Source: Xanthomonas indica | GTDB taxonomy: Bacteria; Pseudomonadota; Gammaproteobacteria; Xanthomonadales; Xanthomonadaceae | NCBI RefSeq assembly: GCF_040529045.1 | Contig: NZ_CP131914.1 | Location: 2,960,501-3,024,500 of the forward strand | DNA: 64,000 nt | Reading direction: 5' to 3' | In this document: in pieces, positions 23,771 to 46,070 of the stretch | How the letters are laid out: each line of letters starts with the position of its first letter | How positions within the stretch are numbered: the stretch's first letter is position 1 | Notes under the pieces: generated by a model | What the model was told of the DNA's origin: nothing | What the model saw: the letters and a program-made list of their open reading frames with translations, nothing else | The model's database searches: none | Program-made: the position numbers and the translations under genes

Positions 23771-26700
23771 TCAGTCCGGCAGCCAGGCCGCGCGCCACTC
23801 CTCCAGGTTGTCGCCCTGCAGTAGCCAGTCGCGCTGCACCGCTGTGCGCAGGGCGGTGCCGGCCGCCATCCGCGCGTCGGCGTCGGCCAGGTGCGCGCGG
23901 ATCGCGTTCACCCAGTCGCGGAAGCGGTTCTTGACCAGGGTGACGGGCAGTCCGCCGTCGCGGTAGGGCGGCAGGTCGCTGGCCACCACCGGATAGCCGC
24001 AGGCGCCGTACTCGAGCAGGCGCAGGTTGCTCTTGCAGCGGTTGAACAGGTTGTCTTCCAGCGGCGCCAGCGCCAGGTCCAGCCTCAGCGCGGCCAGCGC
24101 CTGCGGATAGCGGGCGAAATCCACGCCGTCGTGCACCTCATGCACATGCCGGCGCAGCCGCGCCGGGCACAGGCCCATGAACACCCAGTGCACCTCGCCG
24201 GCCAGCGCCTGCACCACGTCGGCGATCAGCTCGAGATCGCCGGTGTGGCTGAGCCCGCCGGCCCAGCCGACCCGCGGCTTGGTCGCGGCGGACGCCGCCG
24301 GTGCCGGCAGTGCGCCCCACAGCTGCGGCTCCAGCCGGTTGCGCACCACGCGGATGTCGCCGTGCAGGCCGGCCAGCGCCTCGGCCAGGTCCGGGGTGGA
24401 GACGGTGACCCGGTCCACCAGCGTGGCGGCGCGCCTCAGCGAGCGCAGCACGTCCTTGGGCATCTGCTCGCGGTGCGCGCTCTTGAGCGGCAGATTGGGC
24501 AGGTAATCGTCCAGTTCGTAGACCATGAAGGCATTGCCGAACCGGCGCATGCGCTCCATCCGCGCCAGTTCCGCATCGCCGACCCGGCGCTGCAGTACCA
24601 CCACGTCGGCGCCGATGCGCTGCAGTTCCACCGGGTCGAGCAGGCGCGCGTAATACAGGCCGTCGATCTGCGCGGCCGCGGCCAGCGCCTGGAACGGCTG
24701 GATCACCCGGTACTGGCCGCTGCCGAAGGTGTCGCCCGGATGCGCCAGGACCCTGGGCAGCGGCTTCCACGCCAGCGGCTGCCAGGAGAACTCGGACTCG
24801 GTCAGCTGGAAGCCGCCGGGCTGGTCCAGGCCCAGGCTGGGCGAGTAGGCCGGGTCGTGCGCCAGCGCCGGCAGCCAGCGCTGCAGCAGGGCCTCGTCGG
24901 CCGCCTCGCTGCGCGTGGCCGGGGCCGGCTGCAGCAGCAGCGCCTGCGGCGTCCATACGGTCCAGGCGCCGGCCGCCGCGGCGCGCAGGCACAGATCCAC
25001 GTCGGCGCCGCCGGCGGCGAAGCCGGCCGCGTCGAAGCCGGACAGGTGCTCGAACAGCGCTCGCCGCACCAGCAGGCACTGCGCCGACACCGCGCTGTAG
25101 CGGTGCGCCACCTGCAGCCGGCCCATGTAGCCGGGCTGGGCCATCGCTTCCCCGGCGAAGGCGTGGCCGGCGCCAGCCAGCAGCCCCGGCAGCAGGCCGG
25201 CATGGGTGATGCGGCCATCGGCGGACACACCCTTGGCGCCGACGATGCCGACCTCCGGCCGCTGCGCGTGGTTCATCAGCGCGTGCAGCCAGCCGTCCTG
25301 CACCGCGGCGCTGTCGGCATCCAGGAACAGCAGGTACTCGCCCTGCGCCTGGGTGGCGGCGAGGTTGTGCGCCTCGGCTTGCGAGACCCGCTGTTCCAGG
25401 GCGAACACGCGGATGCGGCCATTGCCCAGCTCGGCCACCGCCTGCATCCACGCGGTGATCTCCGGCGCCTGGCTAGCGTTGTCCACCAGCAGCAGTTCGT
25501 AGGCCGGGTAGGCGGTCTGTTCGAGCAGGCTGACCACCGCGCGCTGCAGCGCCGGCAGGTTGTCCTGCGCCAGCAGCACGATCGAGACCGGCGGCTGCCC
25601 GGGATGGCCGTAGTCGATGCGGAACAGGCCGCCCGCCAGCGGCTCGACCATGGCCTGCGGATAGCCGCGGGCCTGCAGGTGCGCGGCGATCGCGCGCTGA
25701 CGCGCCTGTCCGCCGGCCTCGGCGCTGGCCGGCGCGGCGAGCAGCAGCGGCTCGGGCAGGTGCACGATGCCGTCGCCGCCGTCGCGCAGGAACAGACGCA
25801 GGATCAGCTCGAGTTCGCTGGCACCGTCGTAGGCCGGATCGAAGCCGCCGAGCGCCTGCACCGCGGTGCGGCGGAACACCCAATGGCCGGCCGTGGCCAG
25901 CGGATTGCCCAGCAGCAGGTCCAGGTCCGGATCGGGCCGTAGCAGCGGCGCCAGGGTGTCTGCGTCCACGGCCAGCCATTCGTCCGCATACAGCGCGTTG
26001 CATTGCGGCTGCTGCGCCAGTTCCAGCAGCAGCCGCAGCAGGCCGCCGGCGTAGAACCGGTTGCCGGCCGCCACGCGCAGGCACCAGTCGCTGGCCCGCG
26101 CGGTGTCCAGGGCGGCATGCAGGGCCGCCGCATCGGCCTCGAGCGCCAGCGGCGGCAGGATCCGGACTCGCGGGTCCGGCCACGCGGCGAGGGGCGCATC
26201 GCCCAGCACCAGCGCCTGCACCTGCGCGAACGGCGCGCCCTCCAGCAGCAGGCTGTCCAGGGTCGCCGCCAGCGCGGTGCGGTCGGCGCCACGCGCGTCG
26301 ATCAGCACGGCCAGCCGCGGTGCGCCACCGAGTGTGGCCAGGCGCGCATCGAGCAGGGCGCGTTGCGCCGGCGTCAGCGTCCGCCGCGCCTGCCAGTCGC
26401 GCAGGGCGGCTTGCACGCAGACGCGCGCGTAGGCGTCCTGGATCGCCTGCAGCAGGTCGACCGGCGCGCCAGCGCCGCCGCCCAGCGGCGTCGCCGTGAC
26501 CTGGCGCACGTCGCCATCGCCGCGGTACCAGCCCATCGCGCGCACGCCCTGGCGGAAGTTGGCGTGGCCCTGGTCGCCGATGCCGGGCTGGTCGCGGCCG
26601 ACCTGGCTGTATTGCTCCTCCGACACCCGGAAGCGGGTCAGCGGTCGCGCCAGCAGGGCCAGATGGCCGCGGTGCAGCAGCTTGGCGTACAGCGCCAGGT

Positions 26701-27295
26701 CGCCGACCCAGTTGATCACCTTGCCGGCCAGCGTCATCAGCTCGTCGCCGATCTCCAGCAGGTCGCTGCGCCGGCACAGCACGCAACTGGGCTCGCCGAC
26801 GAAATTGATGGTGTGGTCGGCCAGGAACGACAGCAGTTCCGGCCCGTCCAGCAGCACGTCGCCGGCGAACGGGAAGGCGGTGGCCGGGATGTCCTCCAGC
26901 GGCGCGCCGTGGCTGTCGATGCGCTGCCGCCGCGAGGAGGCCAGCAGCACGTCCGGCGCCGACTGCATCGCTGCGACCAGCGCGGCCACGCAGTCCGGCG
27001 CCAGCACATCGTCGTCGTGCAGGAATTTCACGTACTCGCCCTGGGCCAGGGCGATGCCGCGCGCAGTGCTGCCGAGTTCGCCCAGCTGGCTGGGATTGCG
27101 GTGGTAGCGGATCGGGAACGGGGCGCCGGCGGCGCGGCGTTCCACCACCTCGGCGATCGCCTCGGTGGGGTTGTCGTCGCAGATGACCAGTTCCAGTGCC
27201 GGATAGGTCTGGGCCAGCACGCTGTCGAGCGCCTGCTCGAAGTAGCGCAGCTTGTAGGCCGGCATGACCACGCTGACCAGGGGCGGGTGGGGCAT
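23771..27295 (-). CDS. Three-module flagellar glycosyltransferase
   Basis: A 1174-residue cytoplasmic glycosyltransferase. Module 1 (residues about 5-230) is GT2-type: VSVVMPAYKLRYFEQALDSV, VICDDNPTE and a DDD metal/sugar-nucleotide site in KFLHDDDVLAP (about residue 93). A degenerate GT2-like stretch follows (about 370-560). A further GT2 module at about 567-820 has SIVLLAQDNLPALQ, LLLVDNASQ and LFLDADSAAV. The C-terminus (about 845-1174) resembles GT4/GT1 enzymes (TKPRVGWAGGLSHTGDLE, RLLEYGACGYPVVASD). I chose ATG 27295 (MPHPPLVSVV). Its place between the fli and glycan genes indicates it glycosylates flagellin; the large multi-module architecture recalls Fgt1-type enzymes of Pseudomonas syringae. 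The sugar is not deducible. Confidence 0.88.
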   Translation of the reverse strand: MPHPPLVSVVMPAYKLRYFEQALDSVLAQTYPALELVICDDNPTEAIAEVVERRAAGAPFPIRYHRNPSQLGELGSTARGIALAQGEYVKFLHDDDVLAPDCVAALVAAMQSAPDVLLASSRRQRIDSHGAPLEDIPATAFPFAGDVLLDGPELLSFLADHTINFVGEPSCVLCRRSDLLEIGDELMTLAGKVINWVGDLALYAKLLHRGHLALLARPLTRFRVSEEQYSQVGRDQPGIGDQGHANFRQGVRAMGWYRGDGDVRQVTATPLGGGAGAPVDLLQAIQDAYARVCVQAALRDWQARRTLTPAQRALLDARLATLGGAPRLAVLIDARGADRTALAATLDSLLLEGAPFAQVQALVLGDAPLAAWPDPRVRILPPLALEADAAALHAALDTARASDWCLRVAAGNRFYAGGLLRLLLELAQQPQCNALYADEWLAVDADTLAPLLRPDPDLDLLLGNPLATAGHWVFRRTAVQALGGFDPAYDGASELELILRLFLRDGGDGIVHLPEPLLLAAPASAEAGGQARQRAIAAHLQARGYPQAMVEPLAGGLFRIDYGHPGQPPVSIVLLAQDNLPALQRAVVSLLEQTAYPAYELLLVDNASQAPEITAWMQAVAELGNGRIRVFALEQRVSQAEAHNLAATQAQGEYLLFLDADSAAVQDGWLHALMNHAQRPEVGIVGAKGVSADGRITHAGLLPGLLAGAGHAFAGEAMAQPGYMGRLQVAHRYSAVSAQCLLVRRALFEHLSGFDAAGFAAGGADVDLCLRAAAAGAWTVWTPQALLLQPAPATRSEAADEALLQRWLPALAHDPAYSPSLGLDQPGGFQLTESEFSWQPLAWKPLPRVLAHPGDTFGSGQYRVIQPFQALAAAAQIDGLYYARLLDPVELQRIGADVVVLQRRVGDAELARMERMRRFGNAFMVYELDDYLPNLPLKSAHREQMPKDVLRSLRRAATLVDRVTVSTPDLAEALAGLHGDIRVVRNRLEPQLWGALPAPAASAATKPRVGWAGGLSHTGDLELIADVVQALAGEVHWVFMGLCPARLRRHVHEVHDGVDFARYPQALAALRLDLALAPLEDNLFNRCKSNLRLLEYGACGYPVVASDLPPYRDGGLPVTLVKNRFRDWVNAIRAHLADADARMAAGTALRTAVQRDWLLQGDNLEEWRAAWLPD

Positions 27296-27568
27296 GAACG
27301 ATGGACCGTGTCGGAAAAGGAGCGGGGCGCACACTGCGCCTGATCCATCGCTTATGCAACAACCATGCCGCGCGTCGCGGACCTGCCGCGGCGATGTCGT
27401 GGGCTCGGCAGCAGAGCGGTCAGCAGATCGCCGTGCAGCGGGGACAGATCCACCGGGCCGGTCACCATGCCGTGTCATGCCGCGTGCGGCGGGACGTGCC
27501 GGCCTGGCATGCCTATCGCGGCGTAAGTGCTGGCCCCAAAAAGCGCGACACAGCGGAACGTTCCGCCA

Positions 27569-28708
27569 TCAATCCCATTCCACGTAAAGCACGGTGTCGT
27601 AGAAGTACAGCGAGTACTTGCGCAGGCGCAGCCTGGCGCCCGGCAGGATCCGGTCCAGCTCGGCGACGATGTCCAGCAGGTCGAGCGCGTGGTGATAGCA
27701 GGTGATGGCCAAGCGCGGGCGGCAGCGCCGGATCAGTTCGGTGGCCCCGCGCAATACCAGCGGCTCGGCGCCTTCCACGTCCATCTTCAGCAAGGTGGCG
27801 CGCTCGACGACATCGTCCAGGCGCAGGCAGTCCACATGCGCCGCGCCGTTGCCGTCGAGACGGCTGCCCATGGTGCCCTGTGCGTCGAATGCCAAAGTGC
27901 CGGCGCTGTCGGCGACCGCCGCGTTGTACAGCGTGGTGCGGCCACCATCCTCCGCCAATCCCTGCTGCAGGACGGCATAGTTGGTCGGGTCCGGTTCGAA
28001 TGCATGGATGGCCGCATAGCGGTTGCGGGCGGCGATGCGGAACTTGCGCACGGTATCGCCGTCGTAGGCGCCGATGTCCACATAGTGCTCGTCCGCGCCG
28101 ATCCGGATCGGATGCGGATTGCCTGCGAACATGGAGAAATATTCCTGTTCGCCCGGGCACAGCACCTCCAGCAAGGGCTGCCGATCGCCGTTCAGCGCCA
28201 TCTGCAGGACCGCATCGAGCGTGCCTACGCTCAGGGCATCGGCGAGGCGAGCGCGCACGGCGTCGAAGCGTTGGGCATGTGCCAGTGTCTGCGCGCGGGT
28301 CGTCGGTCCGGTCTGGTAGATCAGGGTCATGTCCAGCGCGTACATCAACTCCGGCAGATCGACGTGGCGGCCGCCGACCTGTTGCACCAGTTGCGCAAAG
28401 TGCAGCCACGTCGGGATCGAATAGCCGCAATTGATTGCAGGGAGCTTCGCCAGTTGCGAATCCCGCCGCAGCGCCGCCGTCGGCAGTACGGTATCGAAAC
28501 CGGCGACCGGCGTGCCTTGCGCATCCAGCACGTCGTCCACTGCGACGATCTGGATGCCGGGAGCCCTGGCACGTAGTGCAGCGGCCGCAGCGGCGGCGAA
28601 GACGTTCCCCAGGTAGGAACTGGGGGCGAGGAACATCGCGCCGCCAGCGCGCATGCAAGCATCGATCAGGTCCGCTTCGCGCTGAAGCGCGGCCAGAGGG
28701 TCGGTCAT
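27569..28708 (-). CDS. FkbM-family methyltransferase
   Basis: A 379-residue protein. Residues 1-180 are a domain I do not recognise, containing AMFLAPSSYLGNVFAAA and IVAVDDVLD, which looks Rossmann-like. The C-terminal half is an FkbM-type SAM-dependent O-methyltransferase: YVDIGAYDGDTVRKF (near residue 212, SAM-binding loop), IHAFEPDPTNYA, DDVVERATLLKMDVEGAEP with DVEGAE as the family signature, and RPRLAITCYH. It probably methylates a sugar of the flagellin glycan; the position beside the glycosyltransferase supports this. ATG 28708 (MTDPLAAL) is preferred over 28813. It stands alone with gaps of 273 and 286 bp on either side and no identified sigma-54 site. Confidence 0.82.
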   Translation of the reverse strand: MTDPLAALQREADLIDACMRAGGAMFLAPSSYLGNVFAAAAAAALRARAPGIQIVAVDDVLDAQGTPVAGFDTVLPTAALRRDSQLAKLPAINCGYSIPTWLHFAQLVQQVGGRHVDLPELMYALDMTLIYQTGPTTRAQTLAHAQRFDAVRARLADALSVGTLDAVLQMALNGDRQPLLEVLCPGEQEYFSMFAGNPHPIRIGADEHYVDIGAYDGDTVRKFRIAARNRYAAIHAFEPDPTNYAVLQQGLAEDGGRTTLYNAAVADSAGTLAFDAQGTMGSRLDGNGAAHVDCLRLDDVVERATLLKMDVEGAEPLVLRGATELIRRCRPRLAITCYHHALDLLDIVAELDRILPGARLRLRKYSLYFYDTVLYVEWD

Positions 28709-28842
28709 GGGTCCACTCGAAAGGGCGCGCCATAGGAGGCGTGCGGATGCTGGAAAGACGGATACGAGGGGCATGTCGCGTGGTAGCGCGATCAGGCCGC
28801 AGGGGATCGTCACCCGCGAGCGATCCTAGCGAAGCCTGTCGC

Positions 28843-28994: not shown

Positions 28995-29612
28995 TCAACG
29001 CAGGATGCGGGCGCCGCCAGGCATCAGCGCATCGTAGAAACACCGGTCCGGCAACACGTCCGGCACGGTGCCGGGCAGCAACCATTCGCAGTGCCTGCCG
29101 ATCTTGGCGCCGCTGCGGGTCATGCTGCCGCCGCCCAAGGTGCTGCCCTGGCCAATCTGGGTGCCGCGGCCGAGGTGCACGCCGGCATGCAGGGTGACGC
29201 AGGCGCCTACGCGCACATCCTGTTCGACGATTACCTGCCGTTCCAGCCAACTGCCGGCGCCGATGCTGCTGCCGGCCGCCAAGTTGCAGCCCGGGCCGAC
29301 ATGCACGTTGCCGAGCAGGCGCACGCCGGCGTCGACATGCGCCTGCGGCCAGATCAGGTCGATACTGCCGTAGCCGGCCAGGCGCACGTCGGCGAGCAGC
29401 TTGTGCCGCGACTGGTTGACCGCGCGTTCGTCCATGGCGACGAACACGTCGGTCGTGGCAGGCACATGGCTGGCATGCAGGGCGCCCAGGTCGAAGTTGT
29501 AGCGGTCCTGCGCGTCCAGGACGATGTCCACGTGCGCCAGGCCACATGCCTGCACGGTGCGCTGCGCCTGTTCCAGCGCATGGCCCTGGCCGATCAACAC
29601 CAGCGCGTTCAT
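28995..29612 (-). CDS. Left-handed beta-helix (hexapeptide) acyltransferase-like protein
   Basis: A 205-residue protein. The N-terminal 90 residues begin like PglD/NeuD-type nucleotide-sugar N-acyltransferases (NALVLIGQGHALEQAQ), and residues 90-180 form hexapeptide repeats ([LIV]-G-x4 turns: VGPGCNLAAGSSIGAGSWLE, VRVGACVTLHAGVHLGRGTQ). It is the last gene of the glycan operon, with its ATG overlapping the Rieske gene stop. It is a second member of this fold in the same operon (see 30775-31416), though its N-terminus is more divergent. Acyl donor and acceptor are unknown; transfer of the ACP-borne acyl group to an amino sugar is one inference. Confidence 0.75.
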   Translation of the reverse strand: MNALVLIGQGHALEQAQRTVQACGLAHVDIVLDAQDRYNFDLGALHASHVPATTDVFVAMDERAVNQSRHKLLADVRLAGYGSIDLIWPQAHVDAGVRLLGNVHVGPGCNLAAGSSIGAGSWLERQVIVEQDVRVGACVTLHAGVHLGRGTQIGQGSTLGGGSMTRSGAKIGRHCEWLLPGTVPDVLPDRCFYDALMPGGARILR

Positions 29613-30748
29613 GCCGGTTGCTCCAGCACATTGGCGCGGTACCACAGGTGCTGGCGCACCAGTTCGGTCTCGTAGTCGCCATGCATGAAGGGGCGCGAAT
29701 GCGCGCCTAGGCCCGCCTGGAGGCGTTCCAGCACCGCCGTGTCCTCGGCGATCACCTGGTGCTCGATGCGCATCAGCGTGCTCAGCAGCGCAGTGAAATC
29801 GGTGCGTTCGCTCTTGCGTTGCGCAGTCGCCACCCACAGGTGGTAGTCGGTCTCGTGCGGCGAGACCGGATCGTACTGCTGCAGCACGAAGGAGTCGCCG
29901 CGCACGCTGTAGAAGTTCACGTTCGGATACAGGAACCAGTTGTAGAACGCCGAGTCCTCGCCGTAGCGCTCGCATAGCGGCCGGTACCACTGGTCCTGTG
30001 CCGCGATCTCGGCCTTGGCCGGAAAGCTCAGCGCATGCAGCGGAGGGCACTCGGCCTCCTGCAGCAGTTGCTCCACTACCGAGGGGACGTCCGCCGGCCG
30101 CTCGACATGCGCCGAGGGCTTGGGCGCCGCGGTCATCAGCGGATTGAAGGTCTTGGGATGGATGAACGGGACATGGTTGTAATCCTTCACGTTCTCCATG
30201 TTGAGTTTCCAGTTGTAGCGCACTCGGTGGCAGCTGTAGATCAGTTGGGAGTCCACGTGCGATGCCGCCGCGCGCAACGTCTCCAGGAACGCCGGCGCGA
30301 ACTGTGCCTCCAGCGGCAGCGGCTGCGCGGCCATGTTCACGAACAACAGTTCGCCGACCTGCTGCACATGCAGTTTGGTCAGGCAGATCCCGGCCTTCTC
30401 TTCGGCGGTGAACTGGTACAGGCCGGAATTGGGCAGCCCGCGCAGTTCGCCCTCGGCGCCGAAGGACCAGGCGTGGTACGGGCACACCAGCGGACGCTTG
30501 CCGTGCGACTCGATCTGGATCGCCGACTGCCGGTGCGGGCACTGGTTGAGGAAGGCGCGGATGCCGGCCTCGGTGCGCTGCACCAGCACCGGCACCCCGG
30601 CCACCTGGCGCGCGAAGAACTGGTTGCGCTCGCGCACCATGGAGGCGAAGCCGGCGAAGATCCACAGCTTGCCGAACAGCCGCTGCTGTTCCAGGCGCAG
30701 GCTCTGCGGGCTGATGTAGTGCTCGGCGTCGAGGGCGTGGCGGGTCAT
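29609..30748 (-). CDS. Rieske-type ring-hydroxylating oxygenase alpha-subunit homologue
   Basis: A 379-residue non-heme iron oxygenase. The Rieske [2Fe-2S] site is complete: Cys70-x-His72 and Cys89-x2-His92. The mononuclear iron site is also complete: E185-x3-D189-x2-H192-x4-H197, with a C-terminal EDTAVLERLQAG segment carrying the usual aspartate ligand. It should therefore be active with a reductase partner, which is not encoded nearby. ATG 30748 has AGGAA about 10 nt upstream; a TTG at 30778 overlapping the previous stop is possible. Sitting within the glycan operon, it may hydroxylate or oxidise the acyl chain or sugar. Such a gene in a flagellar locus is unusual. Confidence 0.88.
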   Translation of the reverse strand: MTRHALDAEHYISPQSLRLEQQRLFGKLWIFAGFASMVRERNQFFARQVAGVPVLVQRTEAGIRAFLNQCPHRQSAIQIESHGKRPLVCPYHAWSFGAEGELRGLPNSGLYQFTAEEKAGICLTKLHVQQVGELLFVNMAAQPLPLEAQFAPAFLETLRAAASHVDSQLIYSCHRVRYNWKLNMENVKDYNHVPFIHPKTFNPLMTAAPKPSAHVERPADVPSVVEQLLQEAECPPLHALSFPAKAEIAAQDQWYRPLCERYGEDSAFYNWFLYPNVNFYSVRGDSFVLQQYDPVSPHETDYHLWVATAQRKSERTDFTALLSTLMRIEHQVIAEDTAVLERLQAGLGAHSRPFMHGDYETELVRQHLWYRANVLEQPA

Positions 30749-30774
30749 GCGGAAGGGCGTTCCTGCGTGCGGGG

Positions 30775-31416
30775 TCAACGGCTGAAGATGGTCCGCGCCG
30801 GATTCCCGGCGACGGTGACGTTGGGCGGGACGTCCTTGACCACCACGCTGCCGGCGCCGATCACTGCGCCGTCGCCGATCGCGATGCCGGGCAGCACGGT
30901 GGCGTGGGGGTGGATGACCACGTCGTTGCCGATGCGCGCGCCGCCGCCGACGAACACGAAGTTGCCGATCTGCACGTAGTCGCCGACCACCACATCGTGG
31001 CCGACGATGGTGGTGGCGAGGATGGTGACGAACTCGCCGATGCGGCTGTCGGCGCCGATCGATACGCCGACCTCGAACAGGCTGCCGCGCCCGATCGGCG
31101 TCTCCGAGGCTTCACGCAGGCGCGGGCGCAGCACCATGAAGTCGGCGCCGCGTTCCAGCAGCGGCTGGCTGTAGCGGCGGCGCGCGGCCGGATCGCCGAG
31201 CGCACAGACGAACAGGTCGCCGGGCAGCGGCTGGTAGGTGTCCGGGTCGCCGAGCAGCGGCCAGCGCAAGCCGGGCGCCAATGCGCTGCGGCTGTCCAGG
31301 AAGCCCTTGATGTCCCAGGCCTGGCCGTAGCCGGGATCGTCGGCGCATGCCATCGCCGCCACGCCGCGGCCGAAGCCGCCAGCGCCGACGATCAGGACAT
31401 GTTGCGGCACGGTCAT
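30775..31416 (-). CDS. NeuD/PglD-like sugar acyltransferase
   Basis: A 213-residue protein with the two-part architecture of the NeuD/PglD family. A Rossmann-like N-terminus starts HVLIVGAGGFGRGVA (GAGGFGRG, residues 11-18), and a left-handed beta-helix runs over residues about 105-213 with SIGADSRIGEFVTI, GDYVQIGNFVFVGGG, VVIHPHATVLPGIAIGDGA and the NPAR terminus. Members transfer acetyl or acyl groups to the 4-amino group of UDP- or dTDP-linked amino sugars, which fits the aminotransferase in the same operon. The ATG overlaps the preceding stop by 4 bp. Confidence 0.85.
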   Translation of the reverse strand: MTVPQHVLIVGAGGFGRGVAAMACADDPGYGQAWDIKGFLDSRSALAPGLRWPLLGDPDTYQPLPGDLFVCALGDPAARRRYSQPLLERGADFMVLRPRLREASETPIGRGSLFEVGVSIGADSRIGEFVTILATTIVGHDVVVGDYVQIGNFVFVGGGARIGNDVVIHPHATVLPGIAIGDGAVIGAGSVVVKDVPPNVTVAGNPARTIFSR

Positions 31417-32192
31417 ACGTACTCCACGCCGCCATCCATGCTGAAGGCCTGGCCGGTCACCTTGCTGCTCGCCTGCGACAGGAAATACAGGCATGCCAGG
31501 GCGACGTCCTGGGGCGTGCCGATGCCCAGCGGATAACGCGCGCGGTTCTCCTCGAGCCAGGCCTTGTCCTCGCTGGTCAGCGGCGTTTCGACCAGACTCG
31601 GGCACAGTGCGTTGGCGCGGATGTTACGCCGCACCAATTCCAGTGCCAGCGGGCGCAAGGTGCCGATCAAGGCGGCCTTGGAGCCAGCATAGGGGCCCAC
31701 GCCGACGGTGCCGGTGAGCGCGGCGATGGACGACAGGAACACGATCGAACTGCCGGGGCGCAGCGACTGCCGCGCCAGCAGATGCCGGGTGAGCATCGTC
31801 GGCGCGATGTAGTTGATCGCCATCACTTCGTTGAGAAACGGTTCGCTGACCAGCTTCATCGGCGACAGGCCACGGATGCCGGCGCTGTGCACGACGCCAT
31901 CGAGCGGACCGCACTCGGCGGCGAGCCGTTGCACGGTGGCTGCCTCGCTCAGGTCGCCGGCGAACAGGCGATGGCCGTCGCCAGGCAAGGCGTCCAGCAC
32001 GGCCTGCAGACGTGCCTGATCGCGTCCAGCCACGATCAGTTGCGCACCCGCGCCGGCGCAGGTCTTCGCGACCGCCTCGCCGATCCCCTTCGAGGCGCCG
32101 GTCACCAGCACGGCCTTGCCGTCCAGTCCATACAACCCGCGCAACAGCGCGGAAGGCTCGTCCAACAGGGACATCGGGGTTTCCATGTTCAT
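31413..32192 (-). CDS. Short-chain dehydrogenase/reductase (second of pair)
   Basis: A 259-residue classical SDR. The cofactor motif TGASKGIG is at residues 31-38, the catalytic Ser at 154/155, and Tyr168-x3-Lys172 in PYAGSKAAL. The usual NNAG is HSAG here. It resembles FabG-type 3-ketoacyl-ACP reductases, in keeping with the ACP and ketoacyl synthase upstream; acting on a keto-sugar is the alternative. The ATG at 32192 overlaps the stop of the first SDR (ATGA), and its end overlaps the NeuD-like gene. Confidence 0.86.
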   Translation of the reverse strand: MNMETPMSLLDEPSALLRGLYGLDGKAVLVTGASKGIGEAVAKTCAGAGAQLIVAGRDQARLQAVLDALPGDGHRLFAGDLSEAATVQRLAAECGPLDGVVHSAGIRGLSPMKLVSEPFLNEVMAINYIAPTMLTRHLLARQSLRPGSSIVFLSSIAALTGTVGVGPYAGSKAALIGTLRPLALELVRRNIRANALCPSLVETPLTSEDKAWLEENRARYPLGIGTPQDVALACLYFLSQASSKVTGQAFSMDGGVEYV

Positions 32193-32950
32193 AGGCGCAT
32201 CGGCAGGGAGAGGCCGCCATCGATGGTGAGGGTGCTGCGGGTGATCCAGCGGCTGGCGGCGGACAACAGATAGACCGCGCCCTTGGCGACATCGTCGGCA
32301 TCGATGCGCCCGAGCGGCGTCAGGCTGATCTTGTTTTCCATTTTCGCCGTGGCGCCGAGGGCGTCGAGCATTGGCGTATGCACATAGCCAGGCGCGATGC
32401 AGTTGGCGCGGATGCCACGCTTGGCCTGTTCCAGCGCCAGCGTGCGTACCGCGGCCTCCAGGGCGGCCTTGGATCCGGCGTAACCGGCGCTGGCCTGCGG
32501 TGCTGCCCGTGCGGTCAGGGCGGATACGTAGACCAGCGAGGCACCCGAGGCCAGGCGACGTTTGGCCAGCAACTGTTGGGTAAGTGCGACCGGCGCCAGA
32601 TAGTTCACCGCCAGCATCTGTTGCAAGTGCTGTTCGGCGGCCATGTGGAACGGCACCAGGGTCGCGATCCCGGCGCACGACGCCAGCCCGTGGTAGTGCT
32701 CCGCGGCTTCCAGCAGGCGCGTGCGGGTGGCTGGTTCGGTCAGGTCGCCATCGATGGTCCGATGCCCGGCGCCGTGCAGCGCGTCGGCGACCGCCTGCAG
32801 CCGCACGCGATCGCGTCCGTTGAGCACCAGGGTGGCGCCGAAGCGCGCGCACAGCGTCGCGACAGCGGCGCCGATGCCCGAGGAAGCACCGGTCACCAGG
32901 ATGGTCTTGCCCTGCAGCCCGAAGGCATCGGTGGGTGCGGCAGGCGCCAT
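32189..32950 (-). CDS. Short-chain dehydrogenase/reductase (first of pair)
   Basis: A 253-residue classical SDR with TGASSGIG at residues 20-27, Ser143, and Tyr157-x3-Lys161 (GYAGSKAAL). The NNAG position reads SCAG. It starts 2 bp after the ketoacyl-ACP synthase stop, with ATG at 32950; the frame is open much further upstream but that part is shadow. It is clearly paralogous in overall pattern to the next SDR. Two reductases next to an ACP and a KAS III suggest two reductive steps on a short acyl chain, or one on acyl and one on sugar. Confidence 0.86.
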   Translation of the reverse strand: MAPAAPTDAFGLQGKTILVTGASSGIGAAVATLCARFGATLVLNGRDRVRLQAVADALHGAGHRTIDGDLTEPATRTRLLEAAEHYHGLASCAGIATLVPFHMAAEQHLQQMLAVNYLAPVALTQQLLAKRRLASGASLVYVSALTARAAPQASAGYAGSKAALEAAVRTLALEQAKRGIRANCIAPGYVHTPMLDALGATAKMENKISLTPLGRIDADDVAKGAVYLLSAASRWITRSTLTIDGGLSLPMRL

Positions 32951-32952
32951 CG

Positions 32953-33993
32953 TCAGGACTCGATCAGGTCGGGGAACACCGCGCCGTCGATATCGACCAG
33001 GCAGGTGCCCCAGGACAGGCCGATGCCGAAGCCGCACAACAGCACCCGCTTGCGACCTTCTTCCAGCTCCTTGTTGATCCGCGCGGTCATGGTCACCGGC
33101 AGCGAGGCGCCGCTGGTGTTGCCAAAATCGTGCAGGGTGGAGGGCACCTTTTCCGGGGGCAGGCCGAGCTTCTTGCGGATGGTCTCGTTGATCATCCGGT
33201 TGGCCTGGTGGAACACGAAGTAATCGATCTCGTCCTTGGACACGCCGCTGTAGTCGAGCAGCTTCTGCACCGCCGGCGGTACCCGCTGGGTGGAGAAGCT
33301 CAGCACTGCCACGCCGTCCAGTTGCAGGTCCACGCCGCGGTGCCAACGGTCGTGCTCGTCGGCGCGGTACGGGATCAGGTGTTGCACCCCAACCGGTTCG
33401 CGATGGCCGCCGACGGGCAGGATGATCGCGCGGTAACCGCTGCCGTCGCTGTTGAGGTCGAAATGCATCGGCGCGGCATCGGCGCTGAATTCCAGCGCGG
33501 TGGCGGTGCCGGAGTCGGAAAAGATCGGATCCTCCAGGTTGGCGCTGCGGTCGCCGACCAGCAGCAAACCCTTCTTGACCCCGCCGGCGGCGATCATCGA
33601 GCCGAGCAGGTTGATGCCGAACGGGTAGGCCGAACAGCCCAGGTTGACGTCGAAGGCCACGGTGGCATGCGACAGACCCAGGCGATCCTGCAGGATGATC
33701 GCCGTGGCCGGGATCGGATAATCCGGCGACTGCGTGACCACGATCAGCGCATCGACCTCCTCGCGCTGCCATTGCAGGCGCTCCAGCAGCACCTGCGCCG
33801 CGTCGAAGGCCAGGTCGGAAAAGCACTGCCATTCCGCGGCCATGCGCCGGGTCTCGATGCCGATGTTGCGCACCAGCCGCTCGCGCTCGGAGCGGATCTG
33901 CGGCCGGCAATCGGTCAGGTTGGAGACAACGCGCCTGGGTACGCAGGTCGCCATGCCGGCGAAGCGTACGTTGTGCAGCGTGGAGGTCGGCAT
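32953..33993 (-). CDS. FabH-like 3-oxoacyl-ACP synthase III
   Basis: A 346-residue thiolase-fold condensing enzyme with the complete KAS III triad: Cys120 (NLGCSAYP), His262 (FHQANRMI) and Asn292 (GNTSGASLP). The family condenses an acyl-CoA with malonyl-ACP to make a beta-ketoacyl-ACP. Its gene follows the small ACP gene by one base and precedes two SDRs, so it likely elongates or starts an acyl chain on that dedicated ACP. The housekeeping fabH would sit in a fatty-acid cluster, so this is a specialised copy. The product may be a short hydroxyacyl group for the flagellin sugar. Confidence 0.9.
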   Translation of the reverse strand: MPTSTLHNVRFAGMATCVPRRVVSNLTDCRPQIRSERERLVRNIGIETRRMAAEWQCFSDLAFDAAQVLLERLQWQREEVDALIVVTQSPDYPIPATAIILQDRLGLSHATVAFDVNLGCSAYPFGINLLGSMIAAGGVKKGLLLVGDRSANLEDPIFSDSGTATALEFSADAAPMHFDLNSDGSGYRAIILPVGGHREPVGVQHLIPYRADEHDRWHRGVDLQLDGVAVLSFSTQRVPPAVQKLLDYSGVSKDEIDYFVFHQANRMINETIRKKLGLPPEKVPSTLHDFGNTSGASLPVTMTARINKELEEGRKRVLLCGFGIGLSWGTCLVDIDGAVFPDLIES

Positions 33994-33994
33994 G

Positions 33995-34219
33995 CTAGGC
34001 CTCGGTCAGCTTGTAGAGGTCGCCGAGGGTGACCACGGCGGCCAGATGCTCGCCGGTGATGGTCTTGCCGTACTCCGAGTCGAACATCACGATCACGCCC
34101 AGCGCGGCCAGCGAATCCCACTCGGGCAGGTCGCGCAACACCGTGTCCATGGTCACCTCGACCGGATTCTGGAAGTCGGTCGCGGACAGGAAATTCTCGA
34201 TAAACGTTTCTTGGCTCAT
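33995..34219 (-). CDS. Small acyl carrier protein
   Basis: A 74-residue acidic protein of ACP size. The phosphopantetheine attachment serine is Ser36 in EWDSLAAL (DSL motif), followed by the typical hydrophobic/acidic helix IVMFDSEYG. It diverges from fatty-acid AcpP, which agrees with a dedicated role. It overlaps the aminotransferase stop by 4 bp and is one base from the KAS III gene, so these three are translationally coupled. Confidence 0.9.
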   Translation of the reverse strand: MSQETFIENFLSATDFQNPVEVTMDTVLRDLPEWDSLAALGVIVMFDSEYGKTITGEHLAAVVTLGDLYKLTEA

Positions 34220-35394
34220 GCTGCGGGTTCCACGGGTTGGGCGAAGGAGGAAGGGGCGGTGATGCTAGCGGAATCGGACGCGGGCAGGACGCCGCCCGCC
34301 GCGGCGATCAGGTCGACGATGGCGTCCACCTGCTGGGCCGCCAGTCCGGGAAAGATCGGCAGGCACAGCACGCGTTCGGCCATCTGCCGCGCCACCGGCA
34401 GGCCGGCCGGCGCGGAGGAGGGCAGGCCGCGATACATCGGGAAATCGCTGATCAGCGGGTAGAAATAGCGGCGTACCAGGATGTCGTGGCTGCGCAGCAG
34501 CCGGTGCAGTTCGTCGCGCGCCAGCGGGAAGGCATCCTCGACCAGGATCGGGAACGAGGCGTAATTGGACAGTGCCGGTTCCCGCGGTGCCAGGCAGCGG
34601 ATCCCCGGCACCTGCGCCAGGCGCCGCCGGTACTGCGCATCGATCGCCCCGCGCTGCGCCAGCGCGTCGTCGATGTGCTGCAGTTGCAGCAGCCCGAAGG
34701 CGGCGTTGATCTCGCTCATCTTGCCGTTGATGCCGGTCGCCACCACGGTGGTCTCGTCGACGAAGCCGAAGTTCTTCAGCCGGCTGATACGCTGGTAGGT
34801 CTTGGCGTCCGGGCAGACGATGGCGCCGCCTTCGAAGGTGTTGAACACCTTGGTGGCGTGGAAGCTGAGCACGCTGAGGTCGCCGTGGCGCAGGATCGAG
34901 CCGCCCTCGTCCTTGACCCCGAACGCATGGGCGGCATCGTAGATGACCTTGAGGTTGTAGGTGTCGGCGATGCGCTCGATCGCGGCGGTGTCGCAGGGCG
35001 TGCCGTAGCAGTGCACCGGCATGATCGCAGTGGTGTGCGGGGTGATCGCCGCCTCGATCTTGAGCGGATCCAGGTTCATGGTCTGCGGATCGATGTCCAC
35101 GAACACCGGCTTGATGCCGCGCCACAGCAGCGAATGCGCGGTGGCGACGAAGGAATACGGCGTGGTGATGACCTCGCCGGTGATGCGCAGCGCCTGCAGC
35201 GCAGTCAGCAGTGCCAGGGTGCCGTTGGTCAGCAGCGCCAGGTGGTTCACCCCCAGGTACTCGGCCAGGGCCTTCTCCAGCGCCCGGTGCATGTCGCCGC
35301 CGTTGGTCAGGATGCGGCTGCGCCAGATCTGCTCCAGGTACGGAACGAACGCCTCCAGGGGCGGCAGCAGCGGACTGGTGACGGGGATGGACAT
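34216..35394 (-). CDS. DegT/DnrJ-family sugar aminotransferase, VioA-like
   Basis: A 392-residue PLP-dependent aminotransferase. The PLP lysine is Lys182 in SFHATKVFNTFEGGA and the pyridine-nitrogen aspartate is Asp153 in IYDAAHAFG. The N-terminus VTSPLLPPLEAFVPYLEQIW and RILTNGG are strongly reminiscent of VioA, which makes dTDP-4-amino-4,6-dideoxyglucose (viosamine) from dTDP-4-keto-6-deoxyglucose. The keto-sugar supply (rmlA/rmlB) is not in the window. It is first gene of the glycan operon, 58 nt downstream of a predicted sigma-54 start. ATG 35394 is chosen; the frame further upstream includes the promoter and is excluded. Confidence 0.9.
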   Translation of the reverse strand: MSIPVTSPLLPPLEAFVPYLEQIWRSRILTNGGDMHRALEKALAEYLGVNHLALLTNGTLALLTALQALRITGEVITTPYSFVATAHSLLWRGIKPVFVDIDPQTMNLDPLKIEAAITPHTTAIMPVHCYGTPCDTAAIERIADTYNLKVIYDAAHAFGVKDEGGSILRHGDLSVLSFHATKVFNTFEGGAIVCPDAKTYQRISRLKNFGFVDETTVVATGINGKMSEINAAFGLLQLQHIDDALAQRGAIDAQYRRRLAQVPGIRCLAPREPALSNYASFPILVEDAFPLARDELHRLLRSHDILVRRYFYPLISDFPMYRGLPSSAPAGLPVARQMAERVLCLPIFPGLAAQQVDAIVDLIAAAGGVLPASDSASITAPSSFAQPVEPAA

Positions 35395-35462: not shown

Positions 35463-35478
35463 AGCAAGCCACATGCCA
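35463..35478 (-). promoter_or_regulatory. Sigma-54 promoter of the glycan/acyl operon
   Basis: On the minus strand it reads TGGCATGTGGCTTGCT: GG, 10 bases, GC, preceded by TT as at other flagellar sites. Predicted start near 35452, 58 nt before the aminotransferase ATG. It separates this operon from fleQ and ties it to RpoN control. Confidence 0.82.
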
Positions 35479-35667: not shown

Positions 35668-37151
<1,484 letters not shown>

Positions 37152-37155
<4 letters not shown>

Positions 37156-42908: not shown

Positions 42909-44096
42909 TTAGCCCTGGAGCAGACTCAGCACGCTCTGCGGCGCCTGCTTGGCCTGGGCCAGCATCGCGGTGCCGGCCTGCTGCAGGATCTGCGTACGGG
43001 TCAGCTCGGCGGTTTCCTTGGCGTAATCGGTATCGCGGATGCGGCTGCGCGAGGCCGACAGGTTCTCCGAGGTGGAGCTCAGGTTGGCGATGGTGGAGGT
43101 GAAGCGGTTCTGGATCGCACCCATGTCGGCACGCGAGGAGTTCACCGAGGTCAGCGCGTTGTCGATGATGCTCATCGCCTTCTGCGCGCCCTGGAAGGTG
43201 GAGATATCCACGTCCGCCAGGTAGTTGGTGGTGCCGGCGGTGGCAGCGGCGCTGGCGGCGATGCCGGCGTTGCTGAAGGTGATGCCGGAGGCACCGGTGG
43301 CCGAGCCTGCGGTGAACGAGAAGTCCTGGCCGCCCTTGACCGATTCCAGCTTCAGCGCATTGGTGGACGAATCGATCGAGGCGTACACGCCGGTCTGGGC
43401 CAGCTTGTCGTTGATCGCCGAGACGATCTTCTTGGCCACGTCGGCACCGGCGTCGCCGTTGGCCACCGAGACCGAGGCGATGTTGACGCCGTTGACGACC
43501 ATGCCGGAGAAGCTGCCGCTGGCGGTCGCGGTACCGGAGGCCAGGGCGGCCGAGCCGGTCTGGGTAGCGGCGAAGCCGGCCTTGCCCAGCGCGGCGGCGC
43601 TGGCATTGACGATGCTGTTGATGCCGATGGTCTGGCCCGCGTCGGCGCCGACCTGGAACAGCGCGCCGGAGAACGAACCGTCCAGCAGCTTGGTGCCGTT
43701 GAAGTTGGTCTGGCTGGAGACGCGGTCGATTTCCGCGGCCAGCTGCTTGACTTCCGAGTTCAGCGCACCGCGGTCGGTGGTGGAGTTGGTGGCGTTGGCC
43801 GACTGCACCGCCAGTTCGCGGATACGCTGCAGGTTGTTGCCGATTTCGACCATCGCGCCTTCGGCGGTCTGCGCCAGCGAGATGCCGTCGTTGGCGTTGC
43901 GCGAGGCCACGTCCAGGCCACGGATCTGGGTGGTGAAGCGCTCGGAGATCGCCAGACCGGCCGCATCGTCCTTGGCGCTGTTGATGCGCAGGCCCGAGGA
44001 CAGGCGCTGGATCGTCGTCGCCAGGCTGGTGCTGGTGGTGTTGAGGTTCCGCTGAGCGTTCAGCGACATTACGTTGGTATTGATGACCTGTGCCAT
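42909..44096 (-). CDS. fliC: Flagellin, downstream copy of a tandem pair
   Basis: A 395-residue flagellin. The conserved N-domain is [18 protein letters not shown] followed by the flg22-equivalent region at residues 30-51, with [11 protein letters not shown]. The C-domain ends [20 protein letters not shown]. The central D2/D3 part (residues about 165-300) is Ala/Ser/Thr-rich, suitable for O-glycosylation. It differs from the upstream copy by one residue (Ala169 here, Ser169 there). I chose ATG 44096, with AGGAG about 8 nt upstream, over an upstream start at 44129 in the leader. Two sigma-28-type promoters and its own terminator make it a single-gene unit. Confidence 0.97.
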
Positions 44097-44157
44097 TTCG
44101 ATATCTCCTCTAAGCGATTTATCCGGCAACCCTTGGGTGCCTGGAGCCTCCGCAGGG

Positions 44158-44787: not shown

Positions 44788-45975
44788 TTAGCCCTGGAGC
44801 AGGCTCAGCACGCTCTGCGGCGCCTGCTTGGCCTGGGCCAGCATCGCGGTGCCGGCCTGCTGCAGGATCTGCGTACGGGTCAGCTCGGCGGTTTCCTTGG
44901 CGTAGTCGGTATCGCGGATGCGGCTGCGCGAGGCCGACAGGTTCTCCGAGGTGGAGCTCAGGTTGGCGATGGTGGAGGTGAAGCGGTTCTGGATCGCACC
45001 CATGTCGGCACGCGAGGAGTTCACCGAGGTCAGCGCGTTGTCGATGATGCTCATCGCCTTCTGCGCGCCCTGGAAGGTGGAGATGTCCACGTCCGCCAGG
45101 TAGTTGGTGGTGCCGGCGGTGGCAGCGGCGCTGGCGGCGATGCCGGCGTTGCTGAAGGTGATGCCGGAGGCACCGGTGGCCGAGCCTGCGGTGAACGAGA
45201 AGTCCTGGCCGCCCTTGACCGATTCCAGCTTCAGCGCATTGGTGGAGGAATCGATCGAGGCGTACACGCCGGTCTGGGCCAGCTTGTCGTTGATCGCCGA
45301 GACGATCTTCTTGGCCACGTCGGCACCGGCGTCGCCGTTGGCCACCGAGACCGAGGCGATGTTGACGCCGTTGACGACCATGCCGGAGAAGCTGCCGCTG
45401 GCGGTCGCGGTGCCGGAGGCCAGGGCGGCCGAGCCGGTCTGGGTGGCGGCGAAGCCGGCCTTGCCCAGCGAGGCGGCGCTGGCATTGACGATGCTGTTGA
45501 TGCCGATGGTCTGGCCGGCGTCGGCGCCGACCTGGAACAGCGCGCCGGAGAACGAACCGTCCAGCAGCTTGGTGCCGTTGAAGTTGGTCTGGCTGGAGAC
45601 GCGGTCGATTTCCGCGGCCAGCTGCTTGACTTCCGAGTTCAGCGCACCGCGGTCGGTGGTGGAGTTGGTGGCGTTGGCCGACTGCACCGCCAGTTCGCGG
45701 ATACGCTGCAGGTTGTTGCCGATTTCGACCATTGCGCCTTCGGCGGTCTGCGCCAGCGAAATGCCGTCGTTGGCGTTGCGCGAGGCCACGTCCAGGCCGC
45801 GGATCTGGGTGGTGAAGCGCTCGGAGATCGCCAGGCCGGCGGCGTCGTCCTTGGCGCTGTTGATGCGCAGGCCCGAGGACAGGCGCTGGATCGTCGTCGC
45901 CAGGCTGGTGCTGGTGGTGTTGAGGTTCCGCTGAGCGTTCAGCGACATTACGTTGGTATTGATGACCTGTGCCAT
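44788..45975 (-). CDS. fliC: Flagellin, upstream copy of a tandem pair
   Basis: A 395-residue flagellin with Ser169, otherwise identical in sequence to the copy at 42909-44096. N- and C-terminal D0/D1 domains are conserved and the central part is Ala/Ser/Thr-rich. The nucleotide sequences differ at only about a dozen positions, nearly all silent, so the pair is either a recent duplication or kept alike by gene conversion. ATG 45975 has AGGAG upstream in the leader. It has two sigma-28-type promoters and a strong terminator, and so is transcribed separately from the downstream copy and from flgL. Confidence 0.97.
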
Positions 45976-46070
45976 TTTGATATCTCCTCTTAGCGATTTG
46001 TCCGGCAACCGGTCGGTGCCTGGAGTCTCCGCAGGGGGCCATCAATTGGCCAGTGCGGCTGGTGATACAA

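What the first reader, a model, noticed from the sequence alone, without database searches (positions are those of the whole stretch)
28995..35394. Eight-gene operon coupling a sugar aminotransferase to a carrier-protein acyl pathway and a Rieske oxygenase inside a flagellar locus
Seen: aminotransferase, ACP, KAS III, two SDRs, NeuD-like acyltransferase, Rieske oxygenase and a hexapeptide protein follow each other with 4-bp overlaps or gaps of 1-27 bp; all catalytic residues checked are intact. Known: Pseudomonas syringae flagellin carries a 4-amino-4,6-dideoxyglucose with a modified acyl group made by a 'viosamine island' with VioA-type and acyl-chain enzymes. Inference: this operon builds an N-acylated 4-amino-4,6-dideoxyhexose whose acyl group is made on a dedicated ACP, reduced by one or both SDRs and oxidised by the Rieske enzyme, and puts it on flagellin. 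The exact enzyme set looks unusual and is the best candidate for an undescribed system here.
Basis: partly seen in the sequence, partly recalled or inferred. Interest (0 to 1): 0.82.

Follow-up and report, generated by a model that had tools for sequence, protein, structure and literature searches.

The report
Flagellin sugar operon with Rieske–hexapeptide pair
A Xanthomonas operon beside the flagellar genes very probably builds an acyl-decorated amino sugar for the flagellum; the operon is already known from relatives, but it carries an oxygenase that travels with a small acyltransferase-like partner that looks inactivated, and I found no report of what that pair does.

Summary
The eight genes are real and ordered as stated. 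Not every catalytic residue is intact: SDR 1 has Ala where the catalytic Ser is expected, and the hexapeptide protein lacks its relatives' catalytic His. The system is not undescribed. The same order (aminotransferase, ACP, KAS III, two SDRs, acetyltransferase, Rieske) is printed for the Xanthomonas euvesicatoria flagellar cluster (PMC3826837, Table 5), with counterparts in X. oryzae. Reviews credit a ten-gene, FleQ-dependent island (gigX) in X. oryzae with flagellin glycosylation. The window has ten genes counting its methyltransferase and 1174-residue glycosyltransferase, under a conserved sigma-54 promoter. The viosamine reading is largely supported; that this is gigX is inferred, since I could not see the gigX gene list.

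The new part is the Rieske–hexapeptide pair. In 80 related loci, all 72 detected hexapeptide genes lie directly behind a Rieske gene. In 47 loci with NeuD equally close, Rieske and hexapeptide distances correlate at 0.955, Rieske and NeuD at 0.710. Hexapeptide-linked Rieskes form one clade. The hexapeptide protein has the His in 3 of 65 sequences, the operons' NeuD in 70 of 75. Best reading: an oxygenase plus a non-catalytic, sugar-nucleotide-binding partner that oxidises the acyl group. The chemistry is inferred; no structure could be predicted.

The parts
34216..35394 (-). VioA/DesI-like sugar aminotransferase (DegT family), 392 aa
   Evidence: PF01041 E=7.8e-100; best NCBIfam DesI 292 bits, under its cut-off of 650; solved relatives 2po3 and perosamine synthetases
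33995..34219 (-). dedicated acyl carrier protein, 74 aa, DSL serine at position 36
   Evidence: no Pfam/NCBIfam hit; best solved match E 0.0085; DSL kept in 80 of 80 rows
32953..33993 (-). KAS III (VioS-like), 346 aa, Cys-His-Asn triad intact
32189..32950 (-). SDR 1; Tyr and Lys kept, Ala144 at the place of the catalytic Ser
31413..32192 (-). SDR 2, 45% identical to SDR 1, Ser-Tyr-Lys intact; likelier ketoacyl reductase (VioR-like)
30775..31416 (-). NeuD/VioB-type N-acyltransferase with His140
   Evidence: TIGR03570 168.9 bits over its cut-off of 160.8; His kept in 70 of 75; VioB 7txp
29609..30748 (-). Rieske non-haem iron oxygenase, no beta-subunit gene beside it, metal ligands intact
   Evidence: PF00355, PF00848; ligands kept in 82 of 82 rows; solved relatives include carnitine monooxygenase and a monooxygenase/demethylase, 4qup
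28995..29612 (-). Hex: NeuD-like hexapeptide protein without the catalytic His, partner of the Rieske
   Evidence: TIGR03570 61.3 bits, under its cut-off; His in 3 of 65; N66 and R69 in 64 of 64; 72 of 72 directly behind a Rieske
27569..28708 (-). FkbM-type methyltransferase (start also possible at 28813); candidate for O-methylation of the sugar
   Evidence: TIGR01444 84.9 bits over cut-off 37.7
23771..27295 (-). large glycosyltransferase (VioT-like in size, 1174 aa)
   Evidence: VioT 1173 aa in PMC3927599 Table 1
35463..35478 (-). sigma-54 promoter TGGCATGTGGCTTGCT, beginning 84 nt before the aminotransferase start
   Evidence: only perfect match to the pattern in the window; match in 28 of 30 FleQ-linked loci, 27 of them at -84 to -97
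35668..37155 (-). FleQ, sigma-54 flagellar activator
   Evidence: PF06490, PF00158
37551..39125 (-). sigma-54 factor (RpoN2 by position)
   Evidence: PF04552, PF04963

Best explanation
This is the Xanthomonas flagellin glycosylation island, a variant of the Pseudomonas viosamine island. RmlA/RmlB make dTDP-4-keto-6-deoxyglucose and the aminotransferase turns it into dTDP-viosamine. KAS III builds a short 3-ketoacyl chain on the dedicated ACP, an SDR (SDR 2 rather than SDR 1) reduces it, and NeuD/VioB transfers it to the 4-amino group. The Rieske enzyme, with Hex as non-catalytic partner that binds the sugar nucleotide, then oxidises the N-acyl group. The methyltransferase may methylate the sugar and the large glycosyltransferase adds it to the flagellin glycan. 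FleQ and sigma-54 switch the operon on with the flagellum. Shown here: gene content, state of the active sites, promoter sequence, conservation, Rieske-Hex linkage and co-divergence, loss of the His in Hex. Inferred: every substrate, the order of steps, sugar-nucleotide binding by Hex, control by FleQ in this strain, and flagellin as target.
For: Families; VioB as nearest solved relative of NeuD; rmlB over its cut-off elsewhere in the genome (rmlA not searched); P. syringae vioA, vioB, vioT and vioR mutants lose the modified viosamine (PMC3927599); flagellar neighbours on both sides; conserved sigma-54 promoter; counterparts in X. oryzae PXO99A (PMC3826837 Table 5) and review passages on gigX. 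Pair: 72 of 72 Hex behind a Rieske; distance correlation Rieske-Hex 0.947 against 0.601 for Rieske-NeuD and 0.321 for Rieske-KAS III over 72 pairs, 0.955/0.710/0.204 in 47 single-pair loci with NeuD next door; one clade; His lost in Hex, kept in NeuD.
Against: No chemistry was measured. Loss of His does not prove Hex inactive: a relative (QdtC) is recalled to work without one. Linked genes can co-diverge by joint transfer alone. The Rieske could act on the ACP-bound chain or on the sugar. No reductase partner lies in the operon; five stretches with a plant-type ferredoxin domain exist elsewhere in the genome and none was tied to it. Of the 50 loci not linked to FleQ only 21 show a flagellar marker. 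12 of 80 loci have no Rieske on the operon's strand; five of them end soon after KAS III, the other seven do not, so the core pathway can do without it. Two Rieskes of the Hex-linked kind lack a Hex (L119, L144).
Confidence: 0.66

Rival explanations
1. Hex is an active acyltransferase without a catalytic His: the Rieske installs a hydroxyl and Hex caps it with an acyl group. Each Rieske-Hex pair would then add one decorated position.
For: Tight pairing and joint divergence; two pairs in tandem in 8 of 80 loci; hexapeptide repeats are kept; the second-best solved match of the Hex profile is QdtC, recalled to work without a His.
Against: No His column of the Hex alignment reaches half of 64 sequences; Hex lacks the C-terminal Gly-Asn-Pro-Ala that all 75 NeuD rows keep.
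Confidence: 0.25
2. The Rieske hydroxylates the ACP-bound acyl chain before NeuD transfers it, and Hex docks the ACP.
For: The pair follows a carrier-protein pathway in the operon (the loci were chosen by KAS III, so their number adds nothing); hexapeptide acyltransferases of the LpxA/LpxD type use acyl-ACP (recalled).
Against: The genome's second pair lies about 1 Mb away with no ACP or KAS III hit in the 20 kb around it; Hex keeps an N-x-x-R motif in its N-terminal part, which binds the sugar nucleotide in PglD-type enzymes (recalled).
Confidence: 0.2
3. The island decorates a surface polysaccharide rather than flagellin and sits in the flagellar cluster by chance.
For: 29 of 80 related loci show none of my five flagellar markers in the DNA held.
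Against: Flagellar genes on both sides, conserved sigma-54 promoter beside fleQ, position between flagellar genes also in Pseudomonas aeruginosa PA7 (L109), gigX mutants as reported by reviews.
Confidence: 0.07

Closest known systems
gigX island of Xanthomonas oryzae pv. oryzae (Yu et al. 2018, paper not held; seen only through passages of PMC8657755 and PMC6859632)
   Same: Ten genes, RpoN2/FleQ-dependent, tied to flagellin glycosylation; PXO99A has counterparts of the aminotransferase-to-Rieske genes in its flagellar cluster (PMC3826837 Table 5).
   Different: Gene list of gigX not seen by me; the tailoring genes exist in two forms 30-50% identical, and which form X. oryzae has was not tested.
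Viosamine island of Pseudomonas syringae pv. tabaci 6605 (PMC3927599, section 4 parts 1-2 read)
   Same: VioA, ACP, KAS III (VioS), ketoreductase (VioR), VioB, methyltransferase, very large glycosyltransferase VioT.
   Different: No Rieske and no Hex and a single reductase in its published seven-gene table.
Flagellar cluster of X. euvesicatoria 85-10, XCV2000-XCV2016 (PMC3826837 Table 5, read)
   Same: Glycosyltransferase, then (with others between) Rieske, acetyltransferase, two SDRs, KAS, ACP, aminotransferase, FleQ in this order.
   Different: Listed as annotations only; six genes called hypothetical or cytidylyltransferase lie between Rieske and glycosyltransferase; XCV2006 is in the place of Hex (inferred).
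CMP-Neu5Ac hydroxylase (CMAH; passages of PMC8227644)
   Same: An enzyme with a Rieske domain that hydroxylates the N-acetyl group of an amino sugar.
   Different: Different domain layout; not compared by sequence here; an analogy of function only.

Membership tests
Viosamine-type flagellin glycosylation island | Sugar aminotransferase, ACP, KAS III, ketoreductase, VioB acyltransferase and very large glycosyltransferase together | tested here: met
   (the reductase role falls to SDR 2; SDR 1 lacks the expected Ser)
Viosamine-type flagellin glycosylation island | Located among flagellar genes with a flagellar-type promoter | tested here: met
Viosamine-type flagellin glycosylation island | N-acyl-viosamine present on flagellin | not testable with these tools
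   Needs mass spectrometry
gigX island | Gene-by-gene orthology with gigX1-10 | tested here: inconclusive
   Paper not held; agreement in gene number, position and control only, and the PXO99A column of PMC3826837 Table 5
Rieske non-haem iron oxygenase (alpha subunit) | Rieske Cys/His pairs and 2-His-1-carboxylate iron site | tested here: met
   82 of 82 rows for the Cys and His ligands, 81 of 82 for Asp336
Rieske oxygenase with classical beta subunit | Adjacent beta subunit of the ring-hydroxylating type | tested here: not met
   None of the ten proteins matches such a Pfam family at E<=0.001
NeuD/PglD/VioB acyltransferase (for Hex) | Hexapeptide repeats | tested here: met
   PF00132 53.2 bits over cut-off 27
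NeuD/PglD/VioB acyltransferase (for Hex) | Catalytic His and family cut-off | tested here: not met
   3 of 65 Hex against 70 of 75 NeuD and 7 of 8 outside relatives; 61.3 bits under the cut-off of 160.8
NeuD/PglD/VioB acyltransferase (for NeuD) | Catalytic His and family cut-off | tested here: met
   168.9 over 160.8 bits; His140

The most novel reading that the evidence does not exclude
The Rieske oxygenase and Hex form one enzyme of a new kind: a trimeric oxygenase joined to a trimeric, catalytically dead acyltransferase that serves as a docking subunit for the dTDP-N-acyl sugar. The pair is an exchangeable cassette, sometimes doubled in tandem, that diversifies the acyl group of bacterial flagellin sugars.
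Probability: 0.27. Interest if true: 0.72.

Novelty: new variant of a known kind. Interest (0 to 1): 0.5.

Why it matters
The island shows how a surface protein that hosts and phages meet may be chemically varied: the chain-starting genes stay nearly constant while the genes that tailor the acyl group are swapped between species and families. If the Rieske–Hex pair works as proposed, it would be an oxygenase whose substrate-binding partner is a former acyltransferase, and a bacterial counterpart in logic to the animal sialic-acid hydroxylase. It gives a testable assignment to a gene pair found in many genera of proteobacteria.

Tried and rejected
Rejected: 'undescribed enzyme set'. Rejected: 'all catalytic residues intact' (SDR 1 and Hex). 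Rejected: Hex as an ordinary second NeuD acyltransferase, though an unusual active one is kept as a rival. Considered and not adopted: an SDR as partner of the Rieske; among 73 loci with at least 5.5 kb behind KAS III (7 of 80 dropped), a Rieske is present in 50 of 51 with two SDRs and in 16 of 22 with one (Fisher p=0.002), but relatedness is not corrected for.

Led nowhere: two literature searches for a Rieske in flagellin glycosylation. Of the 18 papers I opened two (passages or sections of PMC3826837 and PMC8227644) and judged the other 16 by title and start of abstract; so 'no report found' means these searches of open-access papers only. Search for Rieske and sugar nucleotides and for the P. 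aeruginosa PAK island gave nothing used beyond PMC3927599. Passages of PMC5550985, PMC7970052, PMC7280030 and PMC4875605 did not give the gigX gene list; PMC7280030 shows vioA beside fleQ and rpoN2 in X. campestris, and PMC4875605 reports ACP and fatty-acid genes in flagellin islands of Enterobacteriaceae. A search for a ferredoxin-type reductase gave candidates without a link. Loci L181 and L182 were fetched and not examined.

Faults of mine that were corrected: gene tables made from open reading frames hide genes overlapped by longer frames, so counts in the 80 loci use the tblastn table; the SDR count missed first SDRs that overlap KAS III and was redone; I had taken a conserved Ser138 of SDR 1 in the output for the catalytic one, set right; the orphan Hex row was translated in a wrong frame, redone. 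The careful tree did not finish; both trees are quick ones, the second with five long-branch rows dropped and near copies thinned, 72 rows.
Full report
Between 28995 and 35394, minus strand, lie an aminotransferase, an ACP, KAS III, two SDRs, a NeuD-type acyltransferase, a Rieske oxygenase and a hexapeptide protein, with gaps of -4, 1, 2, -4, -4, 26 and -4. The key residues of ACP, KAS III, SDR 2, NeuD and Rieske are intact. SDR 1 is not: it has Ala144 where the catalytic Ser is expected, 13 before the Tyr, with a Ser one residue earlier. In two-SDR loci that place is Ala in 33, Ser in 18 and Thr in 1 of 52 first SDRs, Ser in 49 of 52 second SDRs, and Ser in 22 of 22 SDRs that stand alone. The second SDR is thus the likelier reductase. 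The unit is larger than reported: an FkbM methyltransferase (27569-28708) and a 1174-residue glycosyltransferase (23771-27295) follow, before FliE, FliF and FliG; FleQ, a sigma-54 factor, FliD and two flagellin genes lie on the other side.

Control. A perfect sigma-54 promoter match begins 84 nt before the aminotransferase start; it is the only perfect match to the pattern in the window, and 12 sites with up to one mismatch stand against 2.03 expected. A match occurs in 28 of 30 FleQ-linked relatives, in 27 of them at -84 to -97. A control on one strand of the window found 0 matches in 2000 random 330-base segments.

Distribution. KAS III finds the island in 18 of 20 genomes of the window's genus and 31 of 35 of a sister genus. 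Of the 48 such loci read besides the window, 48 hold a Rieske and 47 a Hex; the one without Hex (L041) ends at a contig end. Two Rieske forms occur in the same place: form A (63-97% identical to the window's) in 20 loci, form B (about 30-34%) alone in 28; one of the 20 (L035) has A and B pairs in tandem. A scan of named genomes with KAS III found 83 relatives and kept 80 loci: Xanthomonas, Pseudomonas including P. aeruginosa PA7, Oxalicibacterium, Delftia, Acidovorax, Variovorax, Comamonas, Methylobacillus and others. Many Xanthomonas loci are in both sets. By tblastn, 51 of the 80 show at least one of five flagellar markers; without the 30 FleQ-linked loci this is 21 of 50. A Rieske of this kind is otherwise rare: 4 of 398 genomes of the phylum at E<=1e-45, the window's own among them. 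In two of the other three (G547, G558) it follows KAS III, two SDRs and a NeuD-like gene and is itself followed by a Hex-like gene, by reading of the open frames; the third (G405) was not examined.

What is known. PMC3826837 Table 5 (section 22 part 1 read) lists XCV2007 Rieske, XCV2008 acetyltransferase, XCV2009-2010 short-chain dehydrogenases, XCV2011 KAS, XCV2012 ACP, XCV2013 aminotransferase and XCV2014 FleQ, with counterparts in X. oryzae PXO99A and X. translucens D61454, and none of the ACP-to-Rieske genes in X. campestris ATCC 33913. Passages of two reviews state that ten gigX genes of X. oryzae are RpoN2/FleQ-dependent (PMC8657755) and that the cluster determines flagellin glycosylation by MALDI-TOF (PMC6859632). 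The primary paper is not held, so equating gigX with this island is my inference. The P. syringae viosamine island (PMC3927599, section 4 parts 1-2 read) has the same core, makes N-(3-hydroxybutyryl)-2-O-methyl-viosamine, and lists no Rieske.

The Rieske–Hex pair. By tblastn, 85 Rieske and 72 Hex genes were seen in the 80 loci; every Hex has a Rieske directly before it, and 72 of 85 Rieskes have a Hex behind. The 13 others are: L102, at a contig end; L154, seen as two pieces; L119 and L144, second copies of the Hex-linked kind at 37% and 51% identity (true exceptions); and eight remote Rieskes of 24-30% identity. By the starts that my script chose, Hex overlaps the Rieske gene by 11 nt in 38 and by 4 nt in 19 of 72 pairs, and two pairs stand in tandem in 8 loci. 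Distances between pairs correlate at 0.947 for Rieske and Hex, 0.601 for Rieske and NeuD and 0.321 for Rieske and KAS III; the partial correlation given NeuD and KAS III is 0.915, reached by 0 of 999 permutations. In the 47 single-pair loci in which NeuD is next to the Rieske the values are 0.955, 0.710 and 0.204, and in 36 dereplicated ones 0.951, 0.694 and 0.201. Closeness alone therefore does not explain it, though joint transfer might. Hex-linked Rieskes form one clade: 74 rows, 72 with Hex and two without (L102, L119), or 54 rows, 53 with Hex, after dropping long branches and thinning. Both are quick trees; the second copy of L144 was not among their rows.

Hex is NeuD-like but lacks the His that is catalytic in PglD-type relatives (recalled): in a joint alignment the column is His in 70 of 75 NeuD, 3 of 65 Hex and 7 of 8 outside relatives (63 of 72 Hex passed the length filter, plus the window's Hex and the genome's lone one). 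The eight outside relatives came from 6 of the 368 other class genomes at E<=1e-30. They score 111-123 bits against 129-319 for the 64 Hex rows, many of which trained the profile, and no such Rieske was found in the 3-8 kb around them. So no clear Hex without a Rieske was found in these samples. Hex keeps Asn66 and Arg69 in 64 of 64; that this part binds a sugar nucleotide is recalled from PglD-type enzymes. That Rieske oxygenases of this kind and hexapeptide proteins are both trimers is also recalled, and makes a joint complex plausible. CMAH, with a Rieske domain, hydroxylates an N-acetyl group on a sugar (PMC8227644, passages); this is an analogy, not a claim of homology.

Cassette exchange. 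In the 30 FleQ-linked loci KAS III is 89-100% identical to the window's in 26 and 72% in four, while SDRs, NeuD, Rieske and Hex come in two forms, with mixed loci (L096 and L145: window-like SDRs and NeuD with form-B Rieske), one with both forms (L090) and one with a single SDR (L094). Near relatives of each Rieske form occur in other families, so the tailoring genes have probably moved sideways.

Judgement. The open question is the Rieske–Hex pair, with SDR 1 as a lesser one. No structure could be predicted, because the queue was full at each of 14 attempts.

Noticed in passing
window 42909-44129 and 44788-46008: Two nearly identical flagellin genes in tandem: the translated open frames agree at 405 of 407 positions, stop included.
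   Followed up: partly
G000:C1:1966873-1968622 (L043): A second, lone Rieske-Hex pair about 1 Mb from the island; Rieskes of the second pairs in Variovorax and Acidovorax A1169 islands are 76-77% identical to it, so it may serve the same pathway.
   Followed up: partly
window 32189-32950: SDR 1 has Ala in place of the catalytic Ser, as do 33 of 52 first SDRs in two-SDR loci (the window's included); its role may not be reduction.
   Followed up: partly
window 27355-27370: A sigma-54-like site with one mismatch about 60 nt before the large glycosyltransferase start; it may have its own promoter.
   Followed up: no
L086: A contig labelled as an uncultured Massilia genome carries an island 98% identical in KAS III to the window's; probably a misbinned Xanthomonas contig.
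   Followed up: no
L081 (G163): Island whose KAS III match covers only residues 131-346, with no FleQ or aminotransferase found before it; probably a damaged copy.
   Followed up: no
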